Shown: piece after piece, positions 8,196-32,290 of the stretch | Layout of the letters: each line of letters opens with the position of its first letter | Numbering within the stretch: the stretch's first letter is position 1 | DNA from: a bacterium | Lineage (GTDB): Bacteria > Patescibacteriota > Microgenomatia > Levybacterales > UBA12049 | NCBI GenBank assembly: GCA_021824155.1 | Contig: JAKALN010000005.1 | Span: 1-38,270, forward strand | DNA: 38,270 nucleotides | Reading direction: 5' to 3' | Notes under the pieces: generated by a model | Seen by the model: only the letters and a program-made list of their open reading frames with translations | Databases searched by the model: none | What the model was told of the DNA's origin: nothing | Translations under genes and position numbers: made by a program

Positions 8196-8262
8196 ATTTC
8201 TAATTTCTAATTCAAAATTTTTACTAAAAGTGAAATATCTAAATTTTAAAATTTAAAACATT
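8196..8262. repeat. AT-rich heptad-periodic intergenic repeat
   Basis: TTTCTAA TTTCTAA TTCAAAA TTTTTAC ... Confidence 0.55.
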
Positions 8263-8283
8263 AAGGATCGATTGAAAATTGGT

Positions 8284-9384
8284 ATGAAGGTTGCAATTGT
8301 TCATGACTATATAAAAGAATATGGGGGAGCGGAAAGGGTCTTAGAAGCTCTTTGTGAGATTTTTCCGGATGCGCCTATTTACACAGCCTTTTATAAAAAT
8401 AATTCCATTGCCTACGAACATTTTAAAGATAAGAAGATAATTCCTTCCTGGGCACAGCACTTTCCATTTTTCCCAAAACTCGCAAGTCCTTTAAGGTTTT
8501 TGACTCCTCTAATTTGGGGGAGCTTTAATTTTAAAGATTATGATTTGGTTATTTCTTCCGCAAGTTGGTATATAACAAAAGGATTTAAGAAAAAAGGCAA
8601 TAAATTTATAGAAATTTGCTATTGCCATACTCCACCAAGGTGGCTTTATGGCTATAATACGTCTGTTAATTTCCAAAAACATAGATTAGTAAAGCTGTAT
8701 GCATTAATCGTCGGACATTTTTTAAGGCTATACGATTTTAAAAAGGCGCAAAAAGTTGACTATTTCATAGCAAATTCAAAAGAGGTAAAAAAAAGAATTA
8801 AAAAATTTTACAGAAGAGACTCCACGGTAATTTATCCGCCTGTTTCATTGCCAAAGGTAAATGCCCCAAGCTTAAAAAGAGATTATTATTTTATAGTTTC
8901 AAGAATTGTCGGGGCAAAAGGCCTTGATTTGGCAGTTGATGCAGCGGTCAAAGAAGGATTTAAGCTTAAAATTGCCGGTTCTTCTGCTGGTTATTATTTT
9001 GAACACGATAAGCTGGTGGAGAAGGCAGAAGGGAAAGTAGAATTTTTAGGGCAAGTGACGGATGAAGAACTTGCCAAACTTTATAAAGGGGCAAAAGCTT
9101 TTCTTGCTTTATCTAGAGATGAAGATTTTGGTATTACACCGGTTGAAGCAATGCTTTCGGGAACTCCGGTTATTGCTTTTAACGGAGGTGGATACAGGGA
9201 GACCGTGATAAACGGAAAAACGGGAATCCTCTTTAATGATTATTCTGCCGAAGGGTTAACAGAAGCGATAAAAGAATTTGACAAATTAAATATAAAAGAT
9301 GTAGATTGTATAGCTCAGGGAGAAAAATTTTCAAAAGAAAGATTTAAGAGGGAGATAAAAGATTTTGTAGAGAAATATGCCTGA
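8284..9384 (+). CDS. glycosyltransferase family 4
   Basis: VAIVHDYIKEYGGAERVLEAL, EDFGITPVEAMLSGTPVIAFNGGG. Confidence 0.9.
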   Translation: MKVAIVHDYIKEYGGAERVLEALCEIFPDAPIYTAFYKNNSIAYEHFKDKKIIPSWAQHFPFFPKLASPLRFLTPLIWGSFNFKDYDLVISSASWYITKGFKKKGNKFIEICYCHTPPRWLYGYNTSVNFQKHRLVKLYALIVGHFLRLYDFKKAQKVDYFIANSKEVKKRIKKFYRRDSTVIYPPVSLPKVNAPSLKRDYYFIVSRIVGAKGLDLAVDAAVKEGFKLKIAGSSAGYYFEHDKLVEKAEGKVEFLGQVTDEELAKLYKGAKAFLALSRDEDFGITPVEAMLSGTPVIAFNGGGYRETVINGKTGILFNDYSAEGLTEAIKEFDKLNIKDVDCIAQGEKFSKERFKREIKDFVEKYA

Positions 9385-10219
9385 ACTACCCGAAGTCGAA
9401 ACAGTTAAAATAGGCCTTCAAAAATATCTTGTAGGACACAAAATTTTGGATGTTGAGGTTAAAGTCCCCAAGCTTTTTCAAGGAGACCCCAAAAACTTAA
9501 CTGGTGCAAAAGCAACCGGAATAAGAAGAGTAGGAAAGGGCTTGATAATAGATTTGAATAATGGTTATTCAATGGCAATCCATATAAAATTAACCGGACA
9601 GTTAATTTATAGGGATGAAAAGACCAAGAATGTCCAGGTTTCAAAAGAAAAAGTTGGACAACTTCCGTCAAATGCTACCCATGTTATTTTTACTCTCGAT
9701 AAAGGAGCTATTCTTTATTACAACGACAGAAGAAGATTTGGCTGGATAAAAGTATTGCCAACGGAAGAAGTCTCAGAGCTGCCATTTTTTAAAGGAATGG
9801 GGCCTGAGCCATTTAAAGATTTAACCCTAGAAAAGTTTAAAAAAGTGATTAGTTCATCAAATACTGCTGTTAAGCCTCTGATTATGGATCAGAAAAAAAT
9901 AGGAGGGATAGGAAACATTTACGCAAACGACGCATTATTTTTAGCAGGGATTGACCCGAGAAGGAAAGCGAAAACATTAACAGAAGAAGAGATAGAAAAA
10001 CTTTATAAAGCAGTATATAACGTTATGGAAAAAAGCATTAGATTTGGAGGAGCAAGCGAACTTAACTTTGTAAATGTTTTAGGTCAGGAAGGTGAATACC
10101 AAAACCATTCTTTGGTTTACGGAAAACAAGGGCAAAAATGCCCAAAAGACGGAGAGACAATAAAAAAATTTTTCTTAGGCGGACGTGGCACCTACATCTG
10201 TCCTAAACATCAGAAGTAG
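9377..10219 (+). CDS. mutM: formamidopyrimidine-DNA glycosylase
   Basis: MPELPEVETVKIGL, GGIGNIYANDALF, C-terminal zinc-finger-like region. Confidence 0.94.
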   Translation: MPELPEVETVKIGLQKYLVGHKILDVEVKVPKLFQGDPKNLTGAKATGIRRVGKGLIIDLNNGYSMAIHIKLTGQLIYRDEKTKNVQVSKEKVGQLPSNATHVIFTLDKGAILYYNDRRRFGWIKVLPTEEVSELPFFKGMGPEPFKDLTLEKFKKVISSSNTAVKPLIMDQKKIGGIGNIYANDALFLAGIDPRRKAKTLTEEEIEKLYKAVYNVMEKSIRFGGASELNFVNVLGQEGEYQNHSLVYGKQGQKCPKDGETIKKFFLGGRGTYICPKHQK

Positions 10220-10281
10220 AGGTTGATTTTTGTAAAGTCTAATGATAGTATTAGAACCTAGCGCAAGGAGCTAGTTTTTTT

Positions 10282-10983
10282 ATGGCTTATAAAGACAAAA
10301 TTGTAATGTCTATTGGCGGTTCCCTTATTTTTCCAAATGGGGGAATTGACACTAAGTTCTTAAAAGAACTTAACGCTTTTATTCGAAAGCAACTGGCGAA
10401 AAATAAAAATCGCCAGTTTTTTTTGGTAGTAGGGGGAGGAACAATAGCCAGACATTACAGAGATGCCGGAAGAGAAGTAATAGGCCACGAATTAACAAGA
10501 GATGATTTAGACTGGCTTGGAATTCATGCGACTAAACTTAATGCCCACTTAATAAGAACGATTTTTAGAGATATAGCCCATCCCTACATAATTAAGCATT
10601 ATGAGATTATAAGAAAAGCGCACGAGTCGGTAGTTGTTGCCGCGGGATGGAAACCGGGCTGGTCAACGGATTACGACGCCGTTTTGCTCTGCGAGGATTA
10701 TAACGTTAAGGAAATTATCAATTTAAGCAACATTTCTCAGGTTTTTGATAAAGACCCGAAGAAATACAAAGATGCCAAACCGATAGAAAAAATTTCTTGG
10801 AATAATTTCAGAAAGTTAGTCGGAGATGAATGGATTCCGGGCATGAATGCTCCATTTGACCCCGTTGCCGCACAAAAGGCACAGGAAGAAGGAGTAAAAG
10901 TTGCCGTTTTGTCGGGACACGACTTTAAAAACCTTGAAAAATATTTTAAGGGCGAAAAATTCCTCGGTACTGTGATAGAATAA
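10282..10983 (+). CDS. pyrH: UMP kinase, archaeal-type
   Basis: KIVMSIGGSLI, FFLVVGGGTIARHYRDAG, CEDYNVKEIINLSNISQVFDKDPKKY, PGMNAPFDPVAAQKAQEE. Confidence 0.88.
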   Translation: MAYKDKIVMSIGGSLIFPNGGIDTKFLKELNAFIRKQLAKNKNRQFFLVVGGGTIARHYRDAGREVIGHELTRDDLDWLGIHATKLNAHLIRTIFRDIAHPYIIKHYEIIRKAHESVVVAAGWKPGWSTDYDAVLLCEDYNVKEIINLSNISQVFDKDPKKYKDAKPIEKISWNNFRKLVGDEWIPGMNAPFDPVAAQKAQEEGVKVAVLSGHDFKNLEKYFKGEKFLGTVIE

Positions 10984-10986
10984 GGC

Positions 10987-11068
10987 CATATTTACTATTG
11001 ACTATTTACGATTTATTACTTTTTAGTTAATTAGTAGTTCTAATTAGTAAATAGTAAATTGTATTTTG
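10987..11068. repeat. AT-rich heptad-periodic intergenic repeat with inverted arms
   Basis: TTTACTA TTGACTA TTTACGA ... GTAAATA GTAAATT. Confidence 0.6.
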
Positions 11069-11071
11069 TAA

Positions 11072-12136
11072 ATGATTAAGTCCGTCACTCTCCAAAACTT
11101 CCGAAGTTACAGGAAACAAGAATTTAATTTCGATAAAAAAACAACGGTCATCATTGGTCCGAATACCTCCGGTAAAACAAATCTTATTGAGGCTATTTTT
11201 CTTCTTGCTGTTGGTAAAAGCTTTAGGACCGAAAAAGATATGCAAATGATCTCGTTTAGGGAAGAATTGGGAAGAGTAAAAGGAAAAACCGAAGATAACG
11301 AACTCGAAATAATAATAACAAACGGTCAGTTTAATGGGAAAATTTCTCAATTTAAAAAATTTCTGGTAAACGGAGTTGCTAAAAGACGGGTAGATTTTAT
11401 CGAAAATTTTACGGCAGTTCTGTTTTCTCCTGAAGACTTGGATATTATCGTAGATTCCCCGTCTTTAAGAAGAAAATTTATGGACAATATATTAGAACAG
11501 GTTGACAGGGAATACAGGCTTGCTAGTATTTCATACTCGAAAGCTTTAAGACAAAGGAATGCCCTTTTGGAAAACACAAGAGAAACGGGCATAAAAAATG
11601 AAAAACAATTTGAATATTGGGATGGTTTAGTTATAGGAAACGGTGAGATTATTACTGGAAAGAGGGAAGAATTCATAGAATTTCTCAATAACGAAACAAA
11701 AGACATATTCGATTTTGTTGCATTTTATGATAAGAGCGTAATTTCAAAGCAAAGACTTTTGCAATATAAAGAGGCAGAAGTTGCCTCGGCAGTTACGCTT
11801 GTAGGTCCGCACAGAGATGATTTTTCGGTCTCCATGTTTAATAATACAAGACAAGATACTCATGATGTTAAATTTTTCGGTTCCCGTGGACAGCAGAGGC
11901 TTGTAATACTGCAGCTTAAAATGCTGGAGCTTTTATACATAGAAAAAAAACTTGGGAAAAGGCCTGTTCTTCTTTTGGACGATATATTTTCAGAGCTTGA
12001 TGAAGGGCATATAGAACTTATTCTGGAAATGCTGGACCTTCAGCAGACAATAATAACAACAACGCACAAGGAATTTATTCCGCAAAGTGTATTAAAAAAT
12101 ACTCAGGTGATAAAATTTAGCAAGGAGGATAAATAA
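11072..12136 (+). CDS. recF: DNA replication/repair protein RecF
   Basis: SVTLQNFRSYRKQEFNF, IGPNTSGKTNLIEAI, GSRGQQRLVILQLK, LLLDDIFSELDE. Confidence 0.95.
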   Translation: MIKSVTLQNFRSYRKQEFNFDKKTTVIIGPNTSGKTNLIEAIFLLAVGKSFRTEKDMQMISFREELGRVKGKTEDNELEIIITNGQFNGKISQFKKFLVNGVAKRRVDFIENFTAVLFSPEDLDIIVDSPSLRRKFMDNILEQVDREYRLASISYSKALRQRNALLENTRETGIKNEKQFEYWDGLVIGNGEIITGKREEFIEFLNNETKDIFDFVAFYDKSVISKQRLLQYKEAEVASAVTLVGPHRDDFSVSMFNNTRQDTHDVKFFGSRGQQRLVILQLKMLELLYIEKKLGKRPVLLLDDIFSELDEGHIELILEMLDLQQTIITTTHKEFIPQSVLKNTQVIKFSKEDK

Positions 12137-12999
12137 TGGAGGCGTTTAATATTATAGATTTAAAAAAACTTTATGTTCCAAAACCTTTTTCTCATAAGGG
12201 GGATAACGGGAAGTTGATGATTGTCGGAGGCTCTGTTCTTTTTCATGCTGCATCTCTCTGGGCATTGAAAATTGCGTCAAGAATTGTTGATATGGTGTTT
12301 TACTCTTCTGTAGATTCGAATAATGAAATTGTTCAAAAAGAAAAAGAGGAATTCAGGGAAGGAATAATAGTCCCAAGAGATAAAATTGGGCATTATATGG
12401 AGGAGGCTGATGCAATTTTAATAGGTCCCGGACTTCCAAGGGAAGACGGAATTGAAAAAGGTGATGAGGATACAAAAGAGCTTACGGAAAAATTTCTCAA
12501 AGCTTATCCTAATAAAAAATGGGTAGTTGACGGAGGTTCGTTGCAGGTTATAAATCCTGAAATTTTACCGACAAGCTCAATTATTACTCCGCATCATAAA
12601 GAATTTGAAGTTCTAAAGTCTAGAATTCAGAATTCAGAATTCAGAATTAAAATTCAAAATTCAAAAACCGAAGAACAAGTAAAAATGTTTGCTAACGAGT
12701 TCCATTGCGTTGTTCTTTTGAAAGGGGAAGTCGATATTGTTTCGGACGGAAAATTAACAGTTATGGTCCATGGGGGAAACGCCGGAATGACAAAAGGGGG
12801 GACAGGAGATGTTTTGGCAGGCCTCGTTTCTTCTTTATATTGCAAAAACGATGCATTTATTTCCGCTTGCGCCGCTTCTTATATAAATAAAAAGGCGGGA
12901 GAAAGTCTTTTTGAAAAAGTCGGATATTATTTTAACTCTTCCGATTTGGTTGAGGAAATTCCTGTTATAATGAAAAACCTTATATTAAAGGAGAAATAA
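12136..12999 (+). CDS. nnrD: ADP/ATP-dependent NAD(P)H-hydrate dehydratase
   Basis: KGDNGKLMIVGGS, ILIGPGL, VVDGGSL, GGTGDVLAGLVSSL. Confidence 0.88.
   Translation: MEAFNIIDLKKLYVPKPFSHKGDNGKLMIVGGSVLFHAASLWALKIASRIVDMVFYSSVDSNNEIVQKEKEEFREGIIVPRDKIGHYMEEADAILIGPGLPREDGIEKGDEDTKELTEKFLKAYPNKKWVVDGGSLQVINPEILPTSSIITPHHKEFEVLKSRIQNSEFRIKIQNSKTEEQVKMFANEFHCVVLLKGEVDIVSDGKLTVMVHGGNAGMTKGGTGDVLAGLVSSLYCKNDAFISACAASYINKKAGESLFEKVGYYFNSSDLVEEIPVIMKNLILKEK
12620..12666 (+). repeat. heptad repeat (AGAATTC-type) in-frame in nnrD
   Basis: cTAGAATTCAGAATTCAGAATTCAGAATTAAAATTCAAAATTCAAAA; encodes RIQNSEFRIKIQNSK. Confidence 0.85.
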
Positions 13000-13003
13000 A
13001 GAA

Positions 13004-13198
13004 ATGATAAGCAAAGGAGAAGGTGAGCCTCAAAGGAAATATCCGCCGGGTACAGAGATAGAGACAGATGAACACGGGAGAAAGATAGTTCATTTACCTC
13101 AAATTGGAAGGGTAAGGTTAGGTATTGGTGATAGGAATTTAAGAGGAACAGGACTCACCAAAGGACAAAAATATATTCGAAAAGACGGTCATGATTAG
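13004..13198 (+). CDS. small hypothetical protein
   Basis: ORF directly after nnrD; hydrophilic, no recognised domain. Confidence 0.5.
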   Translation: MISKGEGEPQRKYPPGTEIETDEHGRKIVHLPQIGRVRLGIGDRNLRGTGLTKGQKYIRKDGHD

Positions 13199-13491
13199 CT
13201 TTCTACTTTGTCTAAAATTCTAGAAAGCTGGTAGGTGATAAACACTGCCAATATAGTTACCACTAAAGCATATACAAATAAGGAAATTATTCCGCTGTTT
13301 GCCGGTAGGAATTTTTTTACATAAGAATTAACAAATTCCTGGATTAAACTGTTCCAGGCTAAAGCTGCAACTAAACCAAATCCGCTTGTTGCAAGCGTCA
13401 GCATTTGCTTAATAAGTTCGGTATGGAGCTTTTTTTCTTTTTTAGTTTCTTTTTTTCGGGAATTGTTAGGCATATATTTGGTATAATACAC
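13195..13491 (-). CDS. small two-TM membrane protein (DUF5654-like)
   Basis: FGLVAALAWNSLIQEFVNSYVKK...ISLFVYALVVTILAVFITYQLSRI. Confidence 0.65.
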   Translation of the reverse strand: MYYTKYMPNNSRKKETKKEKKLHTELIKQMLTLATSGFGLVAALAWNSLIQEFVNSYVKKFLPANSGIISLFVYALVVTILAVFITYQLSRILDKVES

Positions 13492-13518
13492 CTAATAATT
13501 TAAATTTTCAATTTTAAG

Positions 13519-14562
13519 ATGTTTGAGCCTAAATATACAATCACAAACAAAATTCTCAAAAATATTGGGAGCGTAGAAGCCTCAAAAGAAATAATAGATA
13601 ATGCTCCTCTTCTGCCTTATTACGAAAGAGAGTTCCAAAAAGATGCAATTGTACGCTCTGTTCATTACGGAACCCACATAGAAGGAAATGAATTGAACCT
13701 TTCCCAGGCAGAAAGAGTGCTTGACGGCCAGGAGGTCCCGGCAAGAGAAAGAGATATCCAGGAGGTAATAAATTACAGAAAGGTAATGGAGTTCATAGGC
13801 CATCTGGGCGGAGAAGAAAAGTTAAAAATCAGCGAGCAGTTAATCAAGGAAATACACAAGCTTACCGTAGAAAAAATTTTAGAACCCGATAAATGCGGAG
13901 TTTTCAGAAAAACGCAGGTTGTTGTTAAAAACAGCCTCACCGGAGAAGTTTCTTTTAAACCCCCTATGGCAGTTGCCGTCCCTTTTCAAATTAAAGAATT
14001 ACTTCTTTTTGTTAATAATTCTTCGGATATGCATCCCGTCCTAAAAAGCGGGGTTTTTCATTACGAGCTTGTAAGAATCCATCCGTATGTTGACGGAAAC
14101 GGAAGGGTTGCAAGAGCTTTATCGACCCTGATTTTATTTATGGAAGGATATGATATACGAAGATTTTTTTCATTGGAAGAATATTTCGATTCGGATGCAG
14201 GAGCATATTACGATGCCCTGCAAAGTGTTTCAAGAAGAGAAGGGGATTTAACGATATGGCTTGAATATTTTTCCTTAGGTCTTTCCATAGAACTTTCAAA
14301 AATAAGGGAAAAGGTCGAAAATATATCAATAGACGCAAAGTTAAAAGAAAAATTAGGAGGAAAACCCTTACTTCTTTCAAACAGGCAGCTTAAGATTATT
14401 GAATATATACAAAAGGCCGGTTATCTTCAAAACCAGGCTTTCGGGCAGCTTTTTCCAATGGTCTCCGAGGACACAATTTTAAACGAATTAAAATCTTTGG
14501 TGAAATCAGGGATAATAAAGAAACACGGAGTAACAAAAGGCGCAAAATATATAATGACATAA
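13519..14562 (+). CDS. Fic/DOC family protein (predicted AMPylase)
   Basis: HPYVDGNGRVARAL Fic motif; THIEGN helix; C-terminal winged-helix-like region. Confidence 0.92.
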   Translation: MFEPKYTITNKILKNIGSVEASKEIIDNAPLLPYYEREFQKDAIVRSVHYGTHIEGNELNLSQAERVLDGQEVPARERDIQEVINYRKVMEFIGHLGGEEKLKISEQLIKEIHKLTVEKILEPDKCGVFRKTQVVVKNSLTGEVSFKPPMAVAVPFQIKELLLFVNNSSDMHPVLKSGVFHYELVRIHPYVDGNGRVARALSTLILFMEGYDIRRFFSLEEYFDSDAGAYYDALQSVSRREGDLTIWLEYFSLGLSIELSKIREKVENISIDAKLKEKLGGKPLLLSNRQLKIIEYIQKAGYLQNQAFGQLFPMVSEDTILNELKSLVKSGIIKKHGVTKGAKYIMT

Positions 14563-14563
14563 T

Positions 14564-16312
14564 ATGAAATTTTCGGAACTAACAAATTATTTTGAAAAAC
14601 TGGAAGAAACAGCTTCAAGGCTTTCTTTAATTGAAATTCTTTCGGAGCTTTTTAAAAAAACCCCCGAGAATGAAATAGATAAAATTGTTTATCTTACCCA
14701 GGGTAGATTAGCTCCTTTTTTTGTTCCCTTGGAAATAGGAATGGCAGAAAAAACTGTTGCCGTATCGATTGCAAACGCATATGGTTTAACAAGAGAAGAT
14801 GTTATAAAGAGCTATAACAATCTGGGAGATATGGGTTTAGCTGCTTTTGAATTGAGTCAAAAACGAAATCAAACAATGAGAAAACGCTTGGAAGAAAACC
14901 TTACGGTTGATGAAGTTTTTATAACCTTAAATGCGATCGCTAATATGAAGGGCCAAGGGACAGTAGAAAAAAGGCAAAAACTATTATCAGAACTTCTTGA
15001 GAAGATGGATCCAGTATCAGCAAAACACTTTGTAAGAATTCCTCTTGGAAATACAAGACTTGGGATAGGAGACCCAACGGTTTTAGACGCATTGGCAACG
15101 GCAAAGCTCGGAGATAGGTCAAAAAGAAAACTTTTGGAGGAGGCATACAACCGAACTTCGGATTTGGGGCTTATTGCTAAAACTCTTTGGAGATATGGAT
15201 TGGTTGAAGTCGAAAAATTACCGGTTATGGTTGGTCATCCAATACGGTCCGAATTATGCGAGAGGCTGCCTAACCCGGAAAAGATAATTGAAAAAATGGA
15301 AGAAGTTGATGTGCAGTATAAATATGATGGTTTTAGGGTGCAAATTCATAAAAACAAAGACGATATCAGAATGTTTTCCAGAAACCTGGAAGAAATGACC
15401 CATATGTTCCCCGAGCTTACCAAAGCTGCAAGAAAACAAATAAAGGCTGATTCGGTAATCCTTGATTCGGAGGCATTGGCCTATAATCCCGAATCGGAGG
15501 AATTTTTACCTTTCCAAGAAACTACTAAAAGAAGAAGAAAACACGGTATTGAGGAAATGGCAGGAAAACTCCCCCTTAAAGCTTTTGTTTTTGACATCCT
15601 TTACAAAAACGGAAAACAGCTTTTAGACGAACCGCTTAAAAAAAGAATGGAAATTTTAAAAGAAACTTTACCGGAAGACGACATTCTTATCCGAACTAAA
15701 AATCAGACAATAAAGGACCCGAAAACCTTAGGAGTTTTACTCGATGATGCTATTTCAAAAGGTTTAGAAGGATTAGTTGTAAAACGCCTTGAAAGCCCCT
15801 ACGTTGCCGGCGGACGAAATTTTAACTGGGTTAAGCTAAAAAGGCATTCATCGGGAGAATTAAACGATACAATTGACTGTGTTATTTTAGGTTATATTAC
15901 AGGAAAAGGTAAAAGAGCCGCATTTGGGGCAGGGGCATTGCTTGTAGGGATTTATGATGATAAAAATGATGAGTTTGTAACTGTTTCAAAAATCGGAACA
16001 GGACTTACAGACGAAGAATGGAGAGAGGTGCATAAAAGAGCGGATAAGATAAAACTTAGCCATAAGCCTCCAAGAATCAATTCTCTCATTATTCCTTCCG
16101 AATGGATAAGGCCGGAAATTGTAATTGAAGTTTTAGCAGATGAAATTACGCGTTCGCCCATTCATACGGCCGGGAAAGAGGGAAACGAGCCGGGTTATGC
16201 TTTAAGATTCCCGCGTTTAGTGTCATTTAGAAATGCGGATAAAAAAGCAGAGGATTCAACAACGGTAAAAGAGCTAATAGAGATGTATCAACAGCAGGGG
16301 AAGAAAGATTAA
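14564..16312 (+). CDS. ATP-dependent DNA ligase, archaeal/eukaryal type I
   Basis: Adenylation motif VQYKYDGFRVQIHK, DSEALAYNP, EGLVVKRLESPYVAGGRNFNWVKLKR, IEVLADEITRSPIHTAG. Confidence 0.95.
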   Translation: MKFSELTNYFEKLEETASRLSLIEILSELFKKTPENEIDKIVYLTQGRLAPFFVPLEIGMAEKTVAVSIANAYGLTREDVIKSYNNLGDMGLAAFELSQKRNQTMRKRLEENLTVDEVFITLNAIANMKGQGTVEKRQKLLSELLEKMDPVSAKHFVRIPLGNTRLGIGDPTVLDALATAKLGDRSKRKLLEEAYNRTSDLGLIAKTLWRYGLVEVEKLPVMVGHPIRSELCERLPNPEKIIEKMEEVDVQYKYDGFRVQIHKNKDDIRMFSRNLEEMTHMFPELTKAARKQIKADSVILDSEALAYNPESEEFLPFQETTKRRRKHGIEEMAGKLPLKAFVFDILYKNGKQLLDEPLKKRMEILKETLPEDDILIRTKNQTIKDPKTLGVLLDDAISKGLEGLVVKRLESPYVAGGRNFNWVKLKRHSSGELNDTIDCVILGYITGKGKRAAFGAGALLVGIYDDKNDEFVTVSKIGTGLTDEEWREVHKRADKIKLSHKPPRINSLIIPSEWIRPEIVIEVLADEITRSPIHTAGKEGNEPGYALRFPRLVSFRNADKKAEDSTTVKELIEMYQQQGKKD

Positions 16313-16656: not shown

Positions 16657-16691
16657 CTGTTAATTTTGTGCTAAAATGGCTCTAGTTCTGT

Positions 16692-18056: not shown

Positions 18057-18122
18057 GTTAATTTAAGATAATGTTAAGTTAGTCCCTCGTATATTAAACT
18101 GAGGGCGAAGGGAGGTGAAAAT

Positions 18123-18582: not shown

Positions 18583-18618
18583 AAAGGGCTATTCCAATAA
18601 ATAGGGTAGCCCTTTTGT
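18583..18618 (+). terminator. intrinsic terminator after the 18123-18563 ORF
   Basis: AAAGGGCTA / TAGCCCTTT stem (583-591/607-615 of 18 kb) followed by T-rich tract. Confidence 0.75.
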
Positions 18619-18619
18619 T

Positions 18620-18684
18620 TTCTAATTTCTATTTTCCAGTTTCAAAATCTAACATCCAGCTTCAATTGTCTATCATCAAATAGT
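18620..18684. repeat. heptad-periodic intergenic repeat
   Basis: TTCTAAT TTCTATT TTCCAGT TTCAAAA TCTAACA TCCAGCT TCAATTG TCTATCA TCAAATA. Confidence 0.65.
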
Positions 18685-19329: not shown

Positions 19330-19331
19330 TT

Positions 19332-22055: not shown

Positions 22056-22058
22056 ATT

Positions 22059-23316: not shown

Positions 23317-23317
23317 C

Positions 23318-24115: not shown

Positions 24116-24230
24116 ACGTGCATTTTATATTTTCCAAAGATTTATTGTCAATAGGTAAAAGGTAAGTAAAGGTATTTTTGAAAGATTTTAATAATTATTA
24201 TATAGTATAAATAAAAGGGGGTGATGAAAT

Positions 24231-24365
24231 ATGATGTGGGGATACGGAAATTACGGAGCAGGTTTTGCCGGTTTTTGGATACTGGGAGTTGTTTTCTATT
24301 TGGTAGCTTTTTTTGATCTGGTTCTCTTGGGAATGTGGCTTTGGAAACAGCTTAAAAAGAAATAA
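24231..24365 (+). CDS. 44-aa single-TM micro-protein MMWGYGNYGAGFAGFWILGVVFYLVAFFDLVLLGMWLWKQLKKK (not in ORF track)
   Basis: SD AAGGGGGTGAT upstream; Trp/Gly-rich N-terminus, one hydrophobic helix, basic C-terminus. Confidence 0.7.
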   Translation: MMWGYGNYGAGFAGFWILGVVFYLVAFFDLVLLGMWLWKQLKKK

Positions 24366-24405
24366 TAAATTGACATATTAAAATTTATGTTCTACTCTAA
24401 TCTTA

Positions 24406-24972
24406 ATGAGTAAATCTTCTGTTATTGAAATCCCCGAACCTAAAATTACTTCTCTGATTTTTGCCGATACAAGGTTTGCGTTAATCTGGTTGCTGCTTCG
24501 TATGTATGTTGGCTGGGAATGGTTTTCGGCCGGCCTTGAAAAAATCCAAAACCCAGCTTGGGTGGGAGGGAAAGCCGGGACTGCCTTAGGAGGATTTATA
24601 GCAGGTGCTTTAGCAAAATCTTCGGGAACCCATCCGGATGTCCAAAGCTGGTATGCAACTTTTCTTCAGCAGTTTGTTATTCATAATACGGTTTTGTTCT
24701 CTTATATTGTTTCTTTCGGGGAGCTTTTGGTCGGAGTTGCGCTTATTTTGGGTCTTTTTACGGGGATCTCTGCGTTTTTTGGCGCTTATATGAATATGAA
24801 CTATCTTTTGGCAGGTACGATTAGCACAAACCCCGTTCTTTTTGCCTTTGAACTTTTACTGATTCTTGCTTGGAGAATTGCAGGATGGTGGGGTTTGGAT
24901 AGATTTGCTCTGCCCCTTGCAGAAAAACATTTAACAGGAAAGATACCTTCCAGAAGGAAAAAACATGGATAA
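24406..24972 (+). CDS. DoxX/DoxD-like membrane protein
   Basis: RMYVGWEWFSAGLEKIQNPAW; promoter TTGACA-17-TACTCT upstream. Confidence 0.82.
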   Translation: MSKSSVIEIPEPKITSLIFADTRFALIWLLLRMYVGWEWFSAGLEKIQNPAWVGGKAGTALGGFIAGALAKSSGTHPDVQSWYATFLQQFVIHNTVLFSYIVSFGELLVGVALILGLFTGISAFFGAYMNMNYLLAGTISTNPVLFAFELLLILAWRIAGWWGLDRFALPLAEKHLTGKIPSRRKKHG

Positions 24973-25966
24973 AATAGTTTTTTTTGACGTTGAGCCCTGG
25001 GAAGAAGAGCATCTAAAAAATGCTCTTTCCGGTTCTGAAGTTACTTTTACTACAGAAAAGCTCACGGAAGAAAATGTCTCAAATTTTATCGATGCCAAGG
25101 TAATATCAACTTTTATCTACTCCACAATAGATAAAGCATTGCTGGATAAACTTCCTAACCTTAAATTTATTACTACAAGGTCAATGGGCTTTGACCATAT
25201 AGATACGCAATACTGCAAACAAAAAGGGATAACGGTTTCAAATGTCCCGACATATGGTTCTTATACTGTTGCCGAGCACACATTTGCCCTTATTTTGGCG
25301 ATAACAAGAAAGCTTCTTCCGGCAATTGCCAAGGCAAAAAAAGGAGATTTTACTCCCGAGGGGCTTGAAGGATTTGATATCCACGGAAAAACTTTGGGAG
25401 TCGTAGGGGCAGGACATATAGGAGGAAATGTTGCTAAGATCGGGCGCGCATTCGGAATGAATGTGCTTGTTTTTTCAAGGCATGTTGATGAAGAGTTGGC
25501 AAAGGACCCGGGAATTAAATTTGTAGATTTGGATACACTTTTGTCTTCTTCAGATATTATCACTCTTCATTTGCCTTTTACAAAAGAAACAGAGCATTTA
25601 ATAAATATGGGTAATATTGGAAAAATTAAAAAAGGAGCAGTGTTAATAAATACGGCAAGAGGGGCTTTGGTCGAAACACAGGCAATACTTCAAGGCTTGG
25701 AGAAGGGGATATTGCAAGGAGCAGGCTTAGATGTTTTAGAAGAAGAATGTGATTTAAGGGAAGAAAAAGAACTTCTAACGGCAGAATTTTTCAAAACCTG
25801 CGATATTAAAACAGACCTTTTAAACCACGTGCTCTTAACAAGGGACGACGTTATTATTACTCCGCATAACGCCTTTAACAGCAAAGAAGCTTTGGAACAA
25901 ATAAACGATACAACAGTCTCCAATATAAAAGCTTTCCTTTCCGGTACCCCGCAAAACACGGTATAG
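24965..25966 (+). CDS. D-2-hydroxyacid dehydrogenase (D-lactate dehydrogenase-like)
   Basis: TTRSMGFDHIDTQYCKQKGITVSNVPTYGSYTVAEHT, GVVGAGHIGGNVAKIG, LINTARGALVET. Confidence 0.9.
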   Translation: MDKIVFFDVEPWEEEHLKNALSGSEVTFTTEKLTEENVSNFIDAKVISTFIYSTIDKALLDKLPNLKFITTRSMGFDHIDTQYCKQKGITVSNVPTYGSYTVAEHTFALILAITRKLLPAIAKAKKGDFTPEGLEGFDIHGKTLGVVGAGHIGGNVAKIGRAFGMNVLVFSRHVDEELAKDPGIKFVDLDTLLSSSDIITLHLPFTKETEHLINMGNIGKIKKGAVLINTARGALVETQAILQGLEKGILQGAGLDVLEEECDLREEKELLTAEFFKTCDIKTDLLNHVLLTRDDVIITPHNAFNSKEALEQINDTTVSNIKAFLSGTPQNTV

Positions 25967-25969
25967 TTT

Positions 25970-26032
25970 AGAATGAATGGTTCATAGTAGATAGTAGAAA
26001 TGAACTATGAACAATAGACTATCCACTATTTT
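25970..26032. repeat. heptad-periodic intergenic repeat with inverted arms
   Basis: ATAGTAG ATAGTAG AAATGAA CTATGAA CAATAGA CTATCCA CTATTTT; GTTCATAG/CTATGAAC arms. Confidence 0.6.
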
Positions 26033-26037
26033 GACTC

Positions 26038-26091
26038 TTGACAAAAAAACCGCAGATGTTATATCCTCTCTATATCCCCCCAGGGGGGATA
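26038..26091 (+). promoter_or_regulatory. promoter with CsoR-type operator TATCCCCCC-A-GGGGGGATA
   Basis: TTGACA 26038-26043, TATATC 26060-26065, perfect 9-1-9 palindrome 26073-26091 over the expected start site. Confidence 0.82.
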
Positions 26092-26101
26092 ATAAAGAAG
26101 C

Positions 26102-26602
26102 ATGGATAAAAAAATTATTGCACTTTTTTCTATTTTTACCTTCGCTGTTATAGGAATTGCAATTTTTGTTGTAGGGTCAGGCAACCCAAAAGCGGAGTTA
26201 CAAAAAACAAAGGGTGCAAAAATATTAACTACAATAACCTCAAAATCAGCAGGAAACATTCCGTATAGCGGGCCGGATTTAATTGAATCATTTCCCATTA
26301 AAAATGTAGGAGACAAAAATCTGGAAATTGCCAATATCGCTACTTCCTGTATGTGTACAAATGCCTATTTAAAGCAAGGAAGCAATAAGAGTGAAGAGTT
26401 TGGAATGAAAGGAATGTCTGCTCCCTCAGCTTGGAAGGGGATTATTAAGCCGGGGGAAACGGCAGAAATAGTTGCAGATTTTAACCCTTCATATCATGGG
26501 CCTTCGGGAATAGGTCCTATTCAAAGAACCGTAAGTTTTGAAACCAACGATCCGGACAACCCTTATGTAGAATTCAATTTTGACGGGACGGTTATAAAAT
26601 GA
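26102..26602 (+). CDS. DUF1573-type secreted/anchored protein
   Basis: FPIKNVGDKNLEIANIATSCMCTNAYL ... GETAEIVADFNPSYHGPSGIGPIQRTVSFETNDP. Confidence 0.85.
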   Translation: MDKKIIALFSIFTFAVIGIAIFVVGSGNPKAELQKTKGAKILTTITSKSAGNIPYSGPDLIESFPIKNVGDKNLEIANIATSCMCTNAYLKQGSNKSEEFGMKGMSAPSAWKGIIKPGETAEIVADFNPSYHGPSGIGPIQRTVSFETNDPDNPYVEFNFDGTVIK

Positions 26603-27555
26603 TGAATAACAAACTATTAAAGGACTACAGGAAGTTATTAAATAAAAATTATTTTTTATTGTTTTTGCTAGTGATAATTGCTTTTCTGTCAGGTTTTATA
26701 ATAGACAGGAAGATAGGGAGTAGGGCCGAAGTGAGGCAACAAACAAAAGCAGCATCCTTTCAAAATACTTCAGCAAATGCCGCTCCAAGCGAGGCAAATA
26801 TAGCAAAGCTTCAAAGCGAAGTTATTAAAAAAGAATATGTGTTCAAAATTAAATGGGGAGATCTGGGACAAAAAATGATTGCTGACGGCGTTATAGATAA
26901 AGAAAAGCTGACAAAAGCGGTAACAGGAACAGACAAATTACCTCAAGATTTAGATAAATATCTTACAGAATACCAAAATTCAATAGAGCTTAATCAAAAT
27001 AACGCACAATTTTGGGTAGACGTTTTATGGGCTTTAGGTCTTGCGAATAACAATCCTATTTTAAATAGCGGTCCTATGGTAGAAGGGGGGAATACGGGAG
27101 GGTTTGCATCTACCGGCGGATATACAATCGGAGTAAATCAGCCCATGAATATTTATTCGAAATACCAATATATAAACCTTTCCAAAGACCAGGAAAATGA
27201 GGTTTACGAAATTGCATCTAATATTTACAGGCCTTGCTGCGGAAATTCTACAGCTTTTCCCGATTGCAATCATGGAATGGCAGCTCTCGGGCTTATAGAA
27301 CTCATGGTTTCCCAAAATTTTTCTAAAGACGATATCTATAAAACAGTTCTTGCTTTTAACACTTATTGGTTTCCTCAAACATATCTTGATACCGCCTATT
27401 ATTTTCAACAAAATGGTAGAGATTACTCTAAAGTTTCACCCCAAGAGCTTCTTTCAAAGACTTTTTCAAGCGCAATGGGCTACCAGGTGATTCAGAAAAA
27501 AGTAGGGGCAATAAAATGGCCTGCGTTACAAAACGGAGGGAGCTGTGGAGCATAA
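26599..27555 (+). CDS. membrane-anchored Cys-rich hypothetical protein with CCGN...PDCNHG motif
   Basis: N-terminal TM; IYRPCCGNSTAFPDCNHGMAALGLIELM; operon context. Confidence 0.75.
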   Translation: MMNNKLLKDYRKLLNKNYFLLFLLVIIAFLSGFIIDRKIGSRAEVRQQTKAASFQNTSANAAPSEANIAKLQSEVIKKEYVFKIKWGDLGQKMIADGVIDKEKLTKAVTGTDKLPQDLDKYLTEYQNSIELNQNNAQFWVDVLWALGLANNNPILNSGPMVEGGNTGGFASTGGYTIGVNQPMNIYSKYQYINLSKDQENEVYEIASNIYRPCCGNSTAFPDCNHGMAALGLIELMVSQNFSKDDIYKTVLAFNTYWFPQTYLDTAYYFQQNGRDYSKVSPQELLSKTFSSAMGYQVIQKKVGAIKWPALQNGGSCGA

Positions 27556-28386
27556 ATGGTTTTCCAAATTTCTTTAATTGCAGCTTTTATTGCAGGAATG
27601 GTGGCTCTGTTTGCCCCATGTTGTATAACTTTTTTACTCCCTTCATATCTTGGAAGTGTTTTTAAAGAAAAAGAAAAAGTTCTTCTTATGACACTAATTT
27701 TTGGTCTTGGCATTTTCGTTATGCTTTTTCCTGCTGTTATCGGGACAGGATTAATTTCAAAATTTCTCTTCAGGTACCATGACAATGTTTATTATTTAGG
27801 TGGAATTGTTTTGATAGCGGTTTCGGTAGTTACTTTCTTGGGAATAAAGCTTCCGATGCCAAATTTCCCGAGAAATAAAAATCCTGAAAAAGTAGACGCG
27901 GTTTCGGTTTTTACAATGGGGATATTCTCGGGAATTACAAGCGCGTGTTGTGCTCCTGTTCTTGTAGGGATTTTAACTTTTGCGTTTCTTTCACCAAATT
28001 TAATCGGAGCAACTTTAATAGGCGCAGTTTATGTGTTAGGTATGGTAACACCTCTTCTTTTAATATCGTTATTCCTAAACGGACGAATAGACAAAGTTCA
28101 ATTTTTAAGAAAACCGGCAGGGCAAATAAAGTTACTGGGTAAAACTTATTTTATTATGACAAGCAATTTAATTGCTTCAATGATATTTTTATTAACAGGG
28201 CTTTTGACGCTTGTTTTGAACTATAAAGGTGTGCTTTCGATGGCAAAAAGCGAGGGATTTGCGCAAATGATTCAGAATGCAGGAGGTTATGTAAATCAAT
28301 ACGTAGGGAATAACCTGATTTTAAATATTATTTTCTTTATACTTGTTATAGCGTTCGCCTTTTATATTTCAAAAAGGATTAAGTAA
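27556..28386 (+). CDS. CcdA/DsbD-like transmembrane thiol:disulfide carrier
   Basis: [21 protein letters not shown] and [22 protein letters not shown], multi-TM. Confidence 0.88.
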
Positions 28387-28390
28387 AACT

Positions 28391-30475
28391 ATGGAGACCG
28401 ATATAAAAACTTTATATACATGTCCTATGGATCCGGATGTTATTAAACATTCTCCGGGCTTTTGTCCTAAATGCGGAATGGATTTGGTGCCGTTAATAAA
28501 AAAGGAAAAGACCGAAGATAACCATTCTCATCACAGCTCAATGGAGGATAACTTCAAAAGAAGATTTTTCATTACTCTTCCATTGGTAATTTTTACAATG
28601 TTACTTTCTCCGAATATCCAAAAATGGTTCCATTATGTTTTTAACTTTCAAGGAAGGGAAATCGTACTTTTTACATTGGGTACTTTTATATTTTTTATAG
28701 GAGGAATGCCATTTTTTATTGCCGCAAAGGGGGAATTAAAAGCAAAATCTCCTGCGATGATGACCCTTGTAGCTTTTGCCATTACAGTAGGTTACATATT
28801 TTCCGTGGCGGCCACTTTTCTTTTTCCGGGAGAGTCTTTATATTGGGAAATTTCAACTTTAATTTCCGTATTCCTTCTGGGACACTGGCTGGAAATGAGA
28901 GCTGTAAGGGGCGCTACGGGAGCTCTTTCGGAGCTTGCCAAACTTATTCCGCCCAGCGCACACCTTATAAAAAACGGTAAAACAATAGATGTAAAAACTG
29001 AAGAATTAGCAATAAAAGACGTGGTTATTGTTAAGCCCGGAGAAAAAATTCCTGTTGATGGAGTTGTTTTGGAAGGCCAATCTTTTGCAGACGAATCTAT
29101 GGTTACCGGAGAATCAAGGCCCATTTCCAAACAGAAGGGCGATAAGGTAATAGGAGGCACTATTAATCAGGACGGGTCTTTAACAATAGAAGTTTCAAAA
29201 ACAGGTTCCGATACTGTAATCTCGCAGATAATGAAGCTGATACAAGAAGCTCAGAGTTCGAAACCGAATGTGCAGCATCTCGCAGACAGGGCAGCGGGCG
29301 TGCTCTTTTATATTGCCGTTATTGCAGGTTTTGTCTCATTCATTTTTTGGCTACTCATTATTCCTCATGGTCTAATTTTTGCAGCTACAATTGCCGTTGC
29401 GGTTGTTGTTGTCGCATGTCCGCATGCATTAGGACTTGCGATTCCCACGGTTACCACCATAACCTCTACTCTTGGCGCTAAAAACGGAATTTTGATTAAA
29501 GAAATGAAAGGCTTGGAGATCGCAAGAAAAATAAATTATGTTGTTTTTGACAAGACGGGAACTCTAACAAAAGGGGAGTTTGGGGTTTCTTCCGTAGGTG
29601 TTTTTACAGGGGTCGAGATCTCCAAAGATGAACTCTTAAGACTAGCCGCATCACTTGAAACAAACTCACAACACTCAATTGCAAAAGGTATATTAGAAGA
29701 GGCAAAAAAAAATAAATTAAATACTTCAAAAGTCTCGAACTTTAAATCGTATCCTGGTAAAGGCGCAGTTGGGACCGTAGATGGGGTAAAAGTTGCTGCA
29801 GGCAACAAAGCCCTGATGGATCAGCTTGGAATAAAAAACCAAAACTTTGATAATAAGTCAACAGGGACACAAGTTTTTGTAGGAATTGATAATAAGCTTT
29901 CAGGTGTCATCTTCTTAAAAGACCAAATAAGAGAAGATTCAAAAGATGTTGTGGATAAGCTTCACAGCATGGGAATAAAAGTAGCAATGTTAACAGGAGA
30001 CGTAAAAGAAGTTGCAGAGGAAGTAGGAGAAAGACTTAATATAGACACGGTTTTTACGGGAGTTTTGCCCGGGGATAAGGTAGAGAGAGTAAAAGAGCTT
30101 CAAAAAGGAGGAAATATTGTCGCAATGGTAGGGGACGGAGTCAATGACGCCCCCTCATTAACCCAAGCGCATGTTGGGATAGCTATAGGAGCGGGAACAG
30201 ATGTTGCAATTGAGTCAGCGGACATAGTTCTTATGAAAAGCGACCCTTTGGATGTAGTTAAGGCAATTTCTTTAAGCAGAAAAACAAATTCCAAGATGGT
30301 TCAAAACCTCGCATGGGCAACAGGTTATAATGTCTTTGCAATTCCGACAGCTGCGGGAATACTTTATCCGACATTCGGAGTATTACTTAGGCCGGAATGG
30401 GCGGCACTTCTTATGAGTGCCTCATCTATAATAGTTGTATTTAATGCGTTACTTTTAAGGAAGACAAAGCTGTGA
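28391..30475 (+). CDS. copB: P1B-type copper-translocating ATPase (CPH/CopB-type) with N-terminal heavy-metal-binding domain
   Basis: [60 protein letters not shown]. Confidence 0.95.
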
Positions 30476-30497
30476 GCGACTTTAGAAAAGAAAGGGG

Positions 30498-31079
30498 GTG
30501 GAAACAATTAAAAAATTAATATTGTTACTATCTGTAACTGCGTTTTTTTTGTTGGTTAAGCCCTCTTTTGCGCAGATGGGAGGAATGATGGGAAACTATC
30601 AGGGGCAAAATCCTCCTTCCCAAAGCGATATTCAAAAAGAACAGAATGAGCAAAATGAAGGACAGGCAATTTATCAAAAACTTCAGGATAAGAGGATAAC
30701 CTGTAAAGATTTAACAAACGACGACTTAGAAAAACTGGGTGATTATTTTATGTGGCAGGCGCTCGGAAGCACAGAAAACCATTTTTATATGGACCAGAGA
30801 ATGACGCAAATGATGGGAGATCAGGCTAATACCCAAGTGCACATAGCATGGGGACAAAGGGGAAGCGGATGCTCTGCGAATACTCCTCTTTCTTCAAATA
30901 CTCTTCCATCTCAAATGAATGTAAATGGTACAACCGGATTACCAATGATGGGCATGATGGGTTATTCAATGATGGCTGATAACAATGGGCTGGGCATTTT
31001 TTCTTTGATACTGTTGTTAACGGCATTGGCTGATCTTATTCTTCTCGGAGCATTGCTTTTTAAAAAAGTCAGAAAATAG
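30498..31079 (+). CDS. secreted/anchored Met-rich protein, GTG start
   Basis: Signal peptide ending ...PSFA-QMGGMMGNYQ; MTQMMGD; C-terminal TM; SD AAAGGGGGTG. Confidence 0.75.
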   Translation: METIKKLILLLSVTAFFLLVKPSFAQMGGMMGNYQGQNPPSQSDIQKEQNEQNEGQAIYQKLQDKRITCKDLTNDDLEKLGDYFMWQALGSTENHFYMDQRMTQMMGDQANTQVHIAWGQRGSGCSANTPLSSNTLPSQMNVNGTTGLPMMGMMGYSMMADNNGLGIFSLILLLTALADLILLGALLFKKVRK

Positions 31080-31080
31080 G

Positions 31081-31130
31081 TTGACAAAAATAAGGTATTG
31101 AGAATATACTTAATCCCTAAGGGGGAGATA
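31081..31130 (+). promoter_or_regulatory. promoter TTGACA-18-TATACT followed by degenerate CsoR-type box TAATCCCTAAGGGGGAGATA
   Basis: Same placement relative to the -10 as the operator at 26073-26091. Confidence 0.72.
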
Positions 31131-31131
31131 T

Positions 31132-31401
31132 ATGTATAGACCAAAAGATACACAGGAAAGAATATTGCACAGGCTAAAAATTTCAAGAGGACATCTTGAT
31201 AAAGTTATTAGAATGATAGAAGACGATGAATATTGCATAGATGTTATGCATCAGATTCATGCAGTAGAAACAGGTCTAAAAGAGACCGGAAATCTCGTTT
31301 TAGAGAATCACCTTAACTCTTGCGTGGCAGATTCAATTTCCCAAGGAAAAAAGGAAGAAGCAATCAAAGAGGTAATGAGCGTATTTAAGAGCAAAGTTTA
31401 A
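31132..31401 (+). CDS. csoR: CsoR-family copper-sensing repressor
   Basis: RLKISRGHLDKVIRMIEDDEYCIDVMHQIHAVETGLKETGNLVLENHLNSCV (C-H-C ligand set). Confidence 0.92.
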   Translation: MYRPKDTQERILHRLKISRGHLDKVIRMIEDDEYCIDVMHQIHAVETGLKETGNLVLENHLNSCVADSISQGKKEEAIKEVMSVFKSKV

Positions 31402-31479
31402 AAAAAGAACATATTTTTGGTTCTTTGATATTGATATCGAACAACCTTCTCCCACTTGACAAAAGGTGTTTAAAAGTAG

Positions 31480-31509
31480 TATTTTAATATTTGAACAACC
31501 ATTAAAATA
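31480..31509 (+). promoter_or_regulatory. inverted repeat TATTTTAAT-N12-ATTAAAATA at arsR start (candidate operator)
   Basis: Perfect 9-bp arms; contains TTGAACAACC; downstream of TTGACA at 31456-31461. Confidence 0.6.
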
Positions 31510-31808
31510 TGAAATTACCATTCAAAAATCAAGCAGGGAATTTCTACGAAGATAGGGCATCTCTTTTAAAATGCGTAGGAGACCCCAACACACTTAAAAT
31601 ACTTGATGCTTTATCAAGAGAAGACAATCCTTGTGTTTCCGATATAACAAAAAATCTAGATATTTCAATTTCCGCAGTCTCCCACCAGCTTTCAAAATTA
31701 AAATCTATGGGAATAGTAGAAACAAAAAGGACAGGCCAGACAATTTGTTATTCGTTGTCCAACAGCGAAAATGCTAATTTTGTAAAAAAGTTGATTGACA
31801 GGGGTTAA
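31509..31808 (+). CDS. ArsR/SmtB-family winged-helix regulator
   Basis: LKILDALSREDNPCVSDITKNLDISISAVSHQLSKLKSMGIVETKRTGQTICYSL. Confidence 0.9.
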   Translation: MKLPFKNQAGNFYEDRASLLKCVGDPNTLKILDALSREDNPCVSDITKNLDISISAVSHQLSKLKSMGIVETKRTGQTICYSLSNSENANFVKKLIDRG

Positions 31809-31823
31809 ACCCTTTGATATTTT
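31795..31823 (+). promoter_or_regulatory. trxA promoter TTGACA-17-TATTTT with palindrome GGGTT-A-AACCC in spacer
   Basis: Palindrome 31802-31812, near-symmetric to 31800-31814. Confidence 0.6.
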
Positions 31824-31844
31824 AATAAAGCAAGGAGGTGACAT

Positions 31845-32165
31845 ATGGCAGATTTAGTAATAACAGACCAAAATTTTGCGGAAGAAGTATTAAATTCTAA
31901 AACTCCGGTTTTAGTTGATTTTTGGGCGGATTGGTGCATGCCTTGCAGAATCGTGAGCCCGATAGTCGAAGAATTGGCAAAGGAATACGGGGATAAACTT
32001 AAAGTAGGAAAGCTAAACGTTGACGAAAACGGACAAACAGCACAAAGTTACGGAATAATGAGTATCCCAAGCCTTCTTGTATTTAAAGACGGACAAGTTG
32101 TAAAACAAATGGTAGGTGCCCAAAGCAAAGATAATTTCAAAAGGGAAATAGACAGCGTTCTCTAA
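31845..32165 (+). CDS. trxA: thioredoxin (active site WCMPC)
   Basis: [37 protein letters not shown]; strong SD. Confidence 0.95.
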
Positions 32166-32290
32166 ATTTGAGATTGGACAATAGATGTTAGAAGTTAGAA
32201 CTTGAAGTTAGCGGTTGGATGTTAGATTTCAATTTTCTATCTTCGAACTTCGAATTCTAGCTTCTAGTTTCCAGTTTCTATTATCAAATA
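32166..32290. repeat. heptad-periodic intergenic hairpin between trxA and trxB
   Basis: GATGTTA GAAGTTA GAACTTG ... TTCGAAC TTCGAAT TCTAGCT TCTAGTT TCCAGTT TCTATTA; opposite-sense arms. Confidence 0.65.

What the first reader, a model, noticed from the sequence alone, without database searches (positions are those of the whole stretch)
8196..32290. Dispersed family of degenerate heptanucleotide-periodic repeats filling intergenic gaps
At least five gaps (8196-8262, 10987-11068, 18620-18684, 25970-26032, 32166-32290) parse cleanly into 7-nt units, e.g. TTCTAAT-TTCTATT-TTCCAGT-TTCAAAA-TCTAACA-TCCAGCT-TCAATTG-TCTATCA-TCAAATA. The unit sequence drifts between and within sites while the 7-nt register stays. 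Several sites have arms of opposite sense that could fold into long imperfect hairpins. Sites share words (TTTCCAGTTTC and ATCAAATA at 18.6 and 32.2 kb). The nearest described analogue I know is the cyanobacterial STRR heptamer repeats; I know of no description in this lineage.
Basis: seen in the sequence. Interest (0 to 1): 0.74.

Follow-up and report, generated by a model that had tools for sequence, protein, structure and literature searches.

The report
Heptad-armed elements carrying four-helix-bundle genes
The seven-letter DNA repeats in the gaps of this tiny bacterium are the mirror-image arms of a family of dispersed, probably mobile DNA elements that, when complete, enclose one small gene (the "23S rRNA intervening-sequence protein"), and the same gene-plus-repeat anatomy occurs in cyanobacteria, which suggests an origin for a class of bacterial repeats whose cause has been unknown.

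Summary
In 399 kb of this genome (a Candidatus Levybacteria relative, CPR) 64 period-7 arrays pass a threshold that dinucleotide shuffles reach 0.7 times, and no other tested period comes near. They are not just decayed microsatellites. Site 32168-32287 is a full copy, and 18614-18679 a half copy, of a discrete ~119-bp dispersed imperfect palindrome (family A, about 22 copies) with sharp TTGA...TCAA ends. Each arm is a ladder of TNGA cores 7 nt apart: cores are 98-99.6% invariant while spacers differ by 46% between copies. The key find lies outside the window: one family A copy has its arms wrapped around an IVP gene (PF05635, S23 / four-helix bundle). Families B and E each have both arms around another IVP gene of the same genome, and F very probably too. 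Across CPR, 33 of 61 IVP genes are flanked by inverted arrays of short units (mostly 7 nt) against 3 of 291 control genes (p=4e-26); on cyanobacterial plasmids 13 of 15 against 0 of 35. Best reading: the heptads are arms of IVP-encoding elements and their gene-less miniature derivatives. That IVP itself reads the heptads and moves the elements is inferred, not shown.

The parts
32168..32287 (.). Full copy of the dispersed family A palindrome (~119-120 bp) filling the trxA-trxB gap: GA-ladder arm, then TC-ladder arm, ends TTGA...TCAA
   Evidence: nhmmer 88.8 bits, model 1-120; alignment of 19 copies; lag-7 77/118 and inverted-repeat p<0.005
18614..18679 (.). Half copy of family A (right half, model 55-120), downstream of an intrinsic-terminator-like hairpin at about 18583-18620
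   Evidence: nhmmer 37.9 bits; no inverted repeat inside the half; sequence
10987..11068 (.). S2: single-copy palindromic heptad array (TATTTAC units), inverted arms spanning about 10993-11063
   Evidence: lag-7 49/75 and inverted repeat p<0.005; no second full copy in own genome or 39 relatives
25970..26032 (.). S4: single-copy palindromic heptad array (ATAGTAG / ACTATNN units), inverted arms spanning about 25977-26015
   Evidence: lag-7 33/56, inverted repeat p=0.005; one partial own-genome match, none in relatives
8196..8262 (.). S1: weak heptad array without detectable inverted arms
   Evidence: lag-7 35/60 p=0.0017; inverted repeat p=0.75
12612..12666 (+). AGAATTC heptad array inside the NAD(P)H-hydrate dehydratase gene, read as ...SRIQNSEFRIKIQNSK...
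   Evidence: TRF and lag scan; Pfam Carb_kinase; translation
3717..3751 (+). CAGAATT heptad array inside a class I tRNA synthetase (Trp/Tyr-type) gene
31845..32165 (+). trxA (thioredoxin), immediately upstream of the family A copy
   Evidence: Pfam Thioredoxin; stop codon 2 nt before the element
32290..33204 (+). trxB (thioredoxin reductase); ATG 2 nt after the element
   Evidence: Pfam Pyr_redox_2; gene call; spacing

Best explanation
The heptad repeats are the arms of a class of dispersed palindromic elements. A complete element is [array of 7-nt units] - [one ~120-codon gene of the PF05635 family: 23S rRNA intervening-sequence protein, S23, four-helix bundle] - [inverted array of the same units]. 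Most copies have lost the gene and persist as ~60-125-bp palindromes, or as half palindromes, in intergenic gaps. SHOWN: discrete boundaries; dispersed copies at unrelated loci; near-invariant cores at 7-nt steps; patchy distribution; turnover of different palindromes in one orthologous gap; both arms of families A, B and E around three different IVP genes of the same genome, with F probably around a fourth; a strong IVP-to-inverted-array association in CPR and on cyanobacterial plasmids. INFERRED: the IVP protein (pentameric in its solved relative Xcc0516) binds its own family's unit in duplex or single-stranded DNA, which fixes the 7-nt step and the core; it promotes copying or insertion of the palindrome with host enzymes; gene-less copies are moved in trans, like MITEs; insertions survive mainly just behind stop codons, where they do least harm.
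For: Family A: 19 full copies in the sequence examined, 1.35 bits per column inside against 0.23 in the flanks. GA cores at offsets 2,9,16,23,30,36,43,50,57 and TC at the mirror offsets. Over 263 heptads T 259, G 262, A 259; core differences 2.5%, spacer differences 45.6%. Gene-bearing copy L039:12585-13077 with arms on both sides of PF05635, E 2e-26. Own IVP genes with cognate arms: B (both arms, E 1e-5 and 7e-4), E (both arms, E 2e-7 and 1e-3), F (right arm E 2e-11, left arm only by inverted repeat). Inverted arrays around IVP: 15/33 near relatives and 18/28 in a phylum-wide set, against 3/291 control genes, Fisher 4e-26; the three control cases are genes beside or between separate repeat copies. 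Cyanobacterial plasmids 13/15 against 0/35 controls. In 47 such loci the unit is 7 nt in 30, 8 in 13, 9 in 3; median distance from stop codon to arm 5 nt; similar IVPs have similar units (Mantel r=0.30, p=0.0005). Patchy spread: 46/280 genomes of the class. The trxA-trxB gap holds family A in three genera, family B or other palindromes in others, and 6-32 nt in three more.
Against: No excision or insertion event was observed: no pair of near-identical strains was available and no target-site duplication is evident. The closest two family A copies still differ at 34% of spacer positions, so there is no sign of recent movement. About 45% of CPR IVP genes show no inverted arms at z>4. Array density follows IVP number only loosely: G006 has 0 IVP and 0 arrays, G025 and G027 have 9-10 IVP and 32-36 arrays per 100 kb, but G005 has no detected IVP and 17 per 100 kb. 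IVP could be a passenger, or a repressor of its own operator, rather than the mover. The Mantel correlation could reflect shared descent alone.
Confidence: 0.75

Rival explanations
1. Plain replication slippage: each array arose locally as a perfect heptanucleotide microsatellite (favoured by polymerase footprint) and decayed by point mutation.
For: Heptamers are the commonest long simple repeats in many bacteria, and a polymerase-footprint explanation has been proposed (Mrazek 2007, as summarised in PMC4679880 and PMC4692102). Some arrays are mainly direct, such as 12612-12666.
Against: Family A copies at unrelated loci share one 119-nt plan with sharp ends and one mirrored 6-nt step. Cores and spacers diverge 18-fold differently. 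Inverted arms abut IVP genes specifically. Slippage predicts none of these.
Confidence: 0.08
2. REP/REPIN-type elements moved by a Y1 (RAYT) transposase, or a retroelement moved by a reverse transcriptase with IVP acting as an Avd-like helper.
For: Palindromic, dispersed, with half copies, as REP singlets are remnants of REPIN doublets (PMC3116915). Avd of diversity-generating retroelements is homologous to PF05635 (PMC10053308).
Against: The 99.5% complete genome has no Y1_Tnp match and no RVT_1 match.
Confidence: 0.05
3. The arrays are cis-regulatory sites kept by selection (operator, centromere-like or transcript-end hairpin); IVP genes sit in them because IVP is the regulator or is autoregulated, and no mobility is involved.
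For: Nearly invariant cores. Position 0-12 nt behind stop codons. The same gap is filled by different palindromes in different species. Omega/ParB of pSM19035 shows that a DNA-binding dimer can read arrays of 7-bp units in direct or inverted order (PMC9499535).
Against: Copies are patchy between genera. No orientation preference relative to transcription. No RNA-strand selection: G-U 84 against A-C 82 in the transcribed strand, with equal fold energies. Arms do not covary to stay paired. No Omega_Repress protein.
Confidence: 0.2
4. IVP is only cargo: an unrelated, unidentified transposase moves the palindromes and the IVP gene hitch-hikes.
For: IVP has no known catalytic site (prior knowledge); integrase or transposase genes lie next to IVP on some cyanobacterial plasmids.
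Against: The only gene found repeatedly inside the arms is IVP, across CPR and cyanobacteria, with units that track IVP sequence.
Confidence: 0.25

Closest known systems
Intervening sequences (IVS) of 23S rRNA with an S23/IVP open reading frame (e.g. Coxiella IVS, PMC4990558)
   Same: Same protein family; the gene lies in the loop of an inverted repeat; thought selfish or mobile; sporadic distribution
   Different: IVS sit in rRNA helices and are cut out by RNase III; here the elements sit between protein genes, have arms built of tandem 7-9-nt units, occur in many copies, and are mostly gene-less
Cyanobacterial STRR heptamer repeats; Xanthomonas GGGAATC and Beggiatoaceae TAACTGA heptamers (PMC4692102, PMC4679880)
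   Same: Intergenic 7-nt tandem units, many sites per genome, some in inverted pairs; on cyanobacterial plasmids here such arrays flank IVP genes
   Different: Described as repeats only, with no gene partner or element boundaries; mostly less degenerate units
MITEs and REP/REPIN elements (PMC3116915)
   Same: Short palindromic, dispersed, gene-less copies with half-element remnants; like MITEs, a gene-bearing partner in the same genome
   Different: No Y1 transposase in the genome, no evident target-site duplication, arms made of 7-nt ladders rather than one conserved terminal repeat
parS arrays of plasmid pSM19035 read by Omega/ParB (PMC9499535)
   Same: Consecutive 7-bp units in direct and inverted order, partly degenerate
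   Different: Six plasmid sites read by a ribbon-helix-helix protein; no Omega_Repress match found here

Membership tests
23S rRNA IVS element | Encodes an S23/IVP (PF05635) protein | tested here: met
   Gene-bearing copies; most copies, including all in the window, lack the gene
[quoted passage not shown]
   33/61 CPR and 13/15 cyanobacterial-plasmid IVP genes at z>4
23S rRNA IVS element | Located inside a 23S rRNA gene | tested here: not met
   Copies lie between protein genes
23S rRNA IVS element | Excised from rRNA by RNase III | not testable with these tools
   No RNA data
REP/REPIN (RAYT-mobilised) | RAYT (Y1_Tnp) gene in the genome | tested here: not met
   PF01797 absent from a 99.5% complete genome, with positive controls
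REP/REPIN (RAYT-mobilised) | Dispersed intergenic inverted pairs, with singlets | tested here: met
   19 full copies and half copies
MITE | Terminal inverted repeats shared with a gene-bearing element in the same genome | tested here: met
   Both arms for families A, B, E; right arm and an inverted repeat for F
MITE | Target-site duplication | tested here: inconclusive
   None visible in the flanks of 19 copies, without a formal test; no close strain for an empty-site comparison
Heptanucleotide simple sequence repeat (STRR type) | Tandem 7-nt units more frequent than chance | tested here: met
Heptanucleotide simple sequence repeat (STRR type) | Direct tandem array only, no further architecture | tested here: not met
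   Family A boundaries, mirror arms, core/spacer split
Omega-type (RHH) operator or parS array | Cognate Omega_Repress protein encoded | tested here: not met
   PF07764 absent

The most novel reading that the evidence does not exclude
IVP/S23 four-helix-bundle proteins are the mobility factors of a previously unrecognised class of mobile element found in CPR, cyanobacteria and probably other bacteria. The pentameric protein reads a ladder of 7-nt (sometimes 8- or 9-nt) units that coevolves with it, and the widespread bacterial heptanucleotide repeats (STRR, GGGAATC, TAACTGA) are arms and gene-less relics of such elements.
Probability: 0.4. Interest if true: 0.95.

Novelty: new variant of a known kind. 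Interest (0 to 1): 0.85.

Why it matters
Heptanucleotide repeats have been known in bacteria for decades and are reported as the commonest class of long simple repeat, with no cause established; S23/IVP proteins have no known function outside their Avd relatives. Tying the two together gives both a testable role: the protein would read the heptads and the heptads would be the ends of its element. It would also explain why the unit differs between genomes while the 7-nt step mostly does not, and would add a new type of small mobile element in some of the smallest bacterial genomes.

Tried and rejected
(1) RNA hairpin under selection: rejected on present evidence. G-U 84 against A-C 82 in the transcribed strand, sense and antisense folds equal, no compensatory changes; S5 alone does fold well as RNA (z -4.2) but weakly as DNA (z -2.2). 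(2) An apparent anti-complementarity of the two arms is partly an artefact of pooling both orientations of an asymmetric palindrome; a smaller deficit remains in two genomes and is left unexplained. (3) Rho sites (TC every 7 nt in one arm): Rho is present, but several families lack YC ladders, so not pursued. (4) Shine-Dalgarno and terminator associations: SD use is weak genome-wide (85/443 against 66/443 shuffled) and the terminator scan was too insensitive to use. (5) RAYT and reverse transcriptase: absent. (6) Omega repressor: absent. (7) Phage carriage: an exact family A pattern gave 0 hits in viral contigs. (8) Remnants of IVP codons in gene-less family B copies: only short low-complexity matches, suggestive at best. 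(10) A planned survey around a Bacteroidota locus failed because the centre must be a genome handle.
Full report
WHERE WE ARE. The window is one complete contig (C4) of an 814-kb, 99.5% complete draft genome. The nearest named relatives of its trxB are Patescibacteria/CPR, mostly Candidatus Levybacteria. Twenty further stretches of the same genome were read; with the window they make 399 kb.

THE OBSERVATION. Period 7 is the best lag at all five sites. Genome-wide, a two-lag detector finds 64 arrays at lag 7 against 0.7 in dinucleotide shuffles and 0-13 at the other lags tested between 4 and 13. Arrays fill 13% of non-coding bases but 0.4% of coding bases, and are in 26% of co-directional gaps of 20 nt or more.

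A DISCRETE ELEMENT. BLAST of S5 against its own genome returned 33 matches, often on both strands at the same place. Iterated nhmmer gave a 119-120-nt palindromic model with 19 full copies in the sequence examined, plus half copies, one of which is S3. In alignment the copies begin TTGA and end TCAA; information falls from 1.35 to 0.23 bits per column at the edges. Each arm is a ladder: GA at offsets 2, 9, 16, 23, 30, 36, 43, 50, 57 and TC at the mirror positions, that is, 7-nt steps with one mirrored 6-nt step. Over 263 pooled heptads the T, G and A of TNGA are kept 259, 262 and 259 times; core columns differ by 2.5% between copies and spacers by 45.6%; even the closest pair differs at a third of its spacer positions with no core change. 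Neutral decay of local repeats cannot give this. Copies lie mostly 0-12 nt behind a stop codon with no preferred orientation. Other families in the genome share the plan but not the unit: B (CTAANNN), E (TNGA at 7- and 9-nt steps), F. S2 and S4 are single-copy palindromes.

SPREAD. With a sequence model of family A, 46 of 280 genomes of the class have matches at E<=1e-8, in many families, but the same-genus genome G001 has only two weak ones. The trxA-trxB gap that holds S5 is telling: family A there in three genera of two families, family B in the same-genus relative L010, three other kinds of palindrome in L014, L015 and L009/L018, and only 6-32 nt in L011, L016 and L020. In other gaps conserved between this genome and G001, arrays are likewise present, absent or replaced.

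THE GENE. Looking for arms with something between them, one family A copy (L039:12585-13077, contig C9) has its left arm, then a 120-aa gene, then its right arm (sequence). The gene is PF05635, the 23S rRNA intervening-sequence protein or S23 four-helix bundle (E 2e-26). The genome has six such genes. A second is flanked by both arms of family B, a third by both arms of family E, and a fourth by the right arm of F with a matching inverted repeat upstream. The natural reading is complete elements and their gene-less derivatives.

TEST OF THE LINK. For each IVP gene the best inverted repeat between 170 nt upstream and 170 nt downstream was scored against shuffles of the same flanks (300 nt for plasmids). 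In near relatives 15 of 33 exceed z=4; in an independent set of 28 from across the phylum, 18; in 291 other short genes, 3, all of them genes lying beside or between separate repeat copies (Fisher p=4e-26). On cyanobacterial plasmids 13 of 15 IVP genes exceed z=4, against 0 of 35 other plasmid genes; one of the 13 (L220) is weak and not clearly periodic. Cyanobacteria (Calothrix) are among the first groups in which tandem heptanucleotides were reported (PMC4692102). In the 47 positive loci of a repeat run the unit length is 7 nt in 30, 8 in 13, 9 in 3; the downstream arm begins a median 5 nt after the stop codon; and similar IVPs have similar units (Mantel r=0.30, p=0.0005), which fits recognition but also plain co-inheritance.

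MECHANISM. Shown: anatomy, core constraint, dispersal, patchiness, gene link. Inferred: IVP reads the ladder and helps the palindrome to copy itself. The solved relative Xcc0516 (2GSC) is reported as a ring of five four-helix bundles (title cited in PMC10053308), so a protein with repeated contacts on a regular ladder is plausible. Avd, a homologue, acts in retrohoming, but this genome has no reverse transcriptase match and no Y1 transposase match, so the chemistry would have to come from the host or an unknown enzyme. Selection for an RNA hairpin was tested and not seen.

KNOWN RELATIVES. IVS in 23S rRNA (PMC4990558) have the same gene in the loop of an inverted repeat, but in rRNA. STRR, GGGAATC and TAACTGA heptamers have the unit but no described gene. 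MITE/REPIN elements have the life style. No paper found in the searchable library joins heptamer repeats to IVP; subscription papers and preprints were not searched.

LIMITS. Draft metagenome genomes; no strain pair; E-values and z-scores from simple shuffles; about 45% of CPR IVP genes lack detectable arms; one genome (G005) has arrays without a detected IVP gene; the cyanobacterial controls come from two plasmids.

Noticed in passing
L048:18108-18266, L008:1435-1589, L042:5063-5250: G+C-rich REP-like hairpins (CCCGCCTGC...GCGGGCAGG) are nested at the same place inside three family A copies, and one copy carries a second such insert in its other arm.
   Followed up: no
L219 (Anabaena sp. 90 pANA02) and L225 (Pseudanabaena pPg_01): The IVP gene with its heptad arrays (339 bp in Anabaena) sits between cas6 and cas4 on both cyanobacterial plasmids.
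   Followed up: partly
Family A in own genome and in G018 (L115-L127): The two arms of one copy are slightly less complementary than arms taken from different copies (0.426 vs 0.485 and 0.394 vs 0.471 at variable pairs), even after orienting copies; in the own genome the number of paired positions is unusually constant (37-41 of 58).
   Followed up: partly
window 12612-12666 and 3717-3751: Heptad arrays read in frame inside two housekeeping genes (NAD(P)H-hydrate dehydratase and a Trp/Tyr-type tRNA synthetase).
   Followed up: partly
L009 and L018, upstream of trxB: A different G+C-richer palindrome (GCTGAGGTCGCT...AAAATTTT...AGCTCCCCGCAC) fills the trxA-trxB gap in two relatives.
   Followed up: no
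whole genome: Shine-Dalgarno-like motifs are hardly above chance upstream of called genes (85/443 against 66/443 shuffled).
   Followed up: no
window 13519-14562: A Fic/DOC-family gene with a C-terminal DeoR-type HTH match.
   Followed up: no
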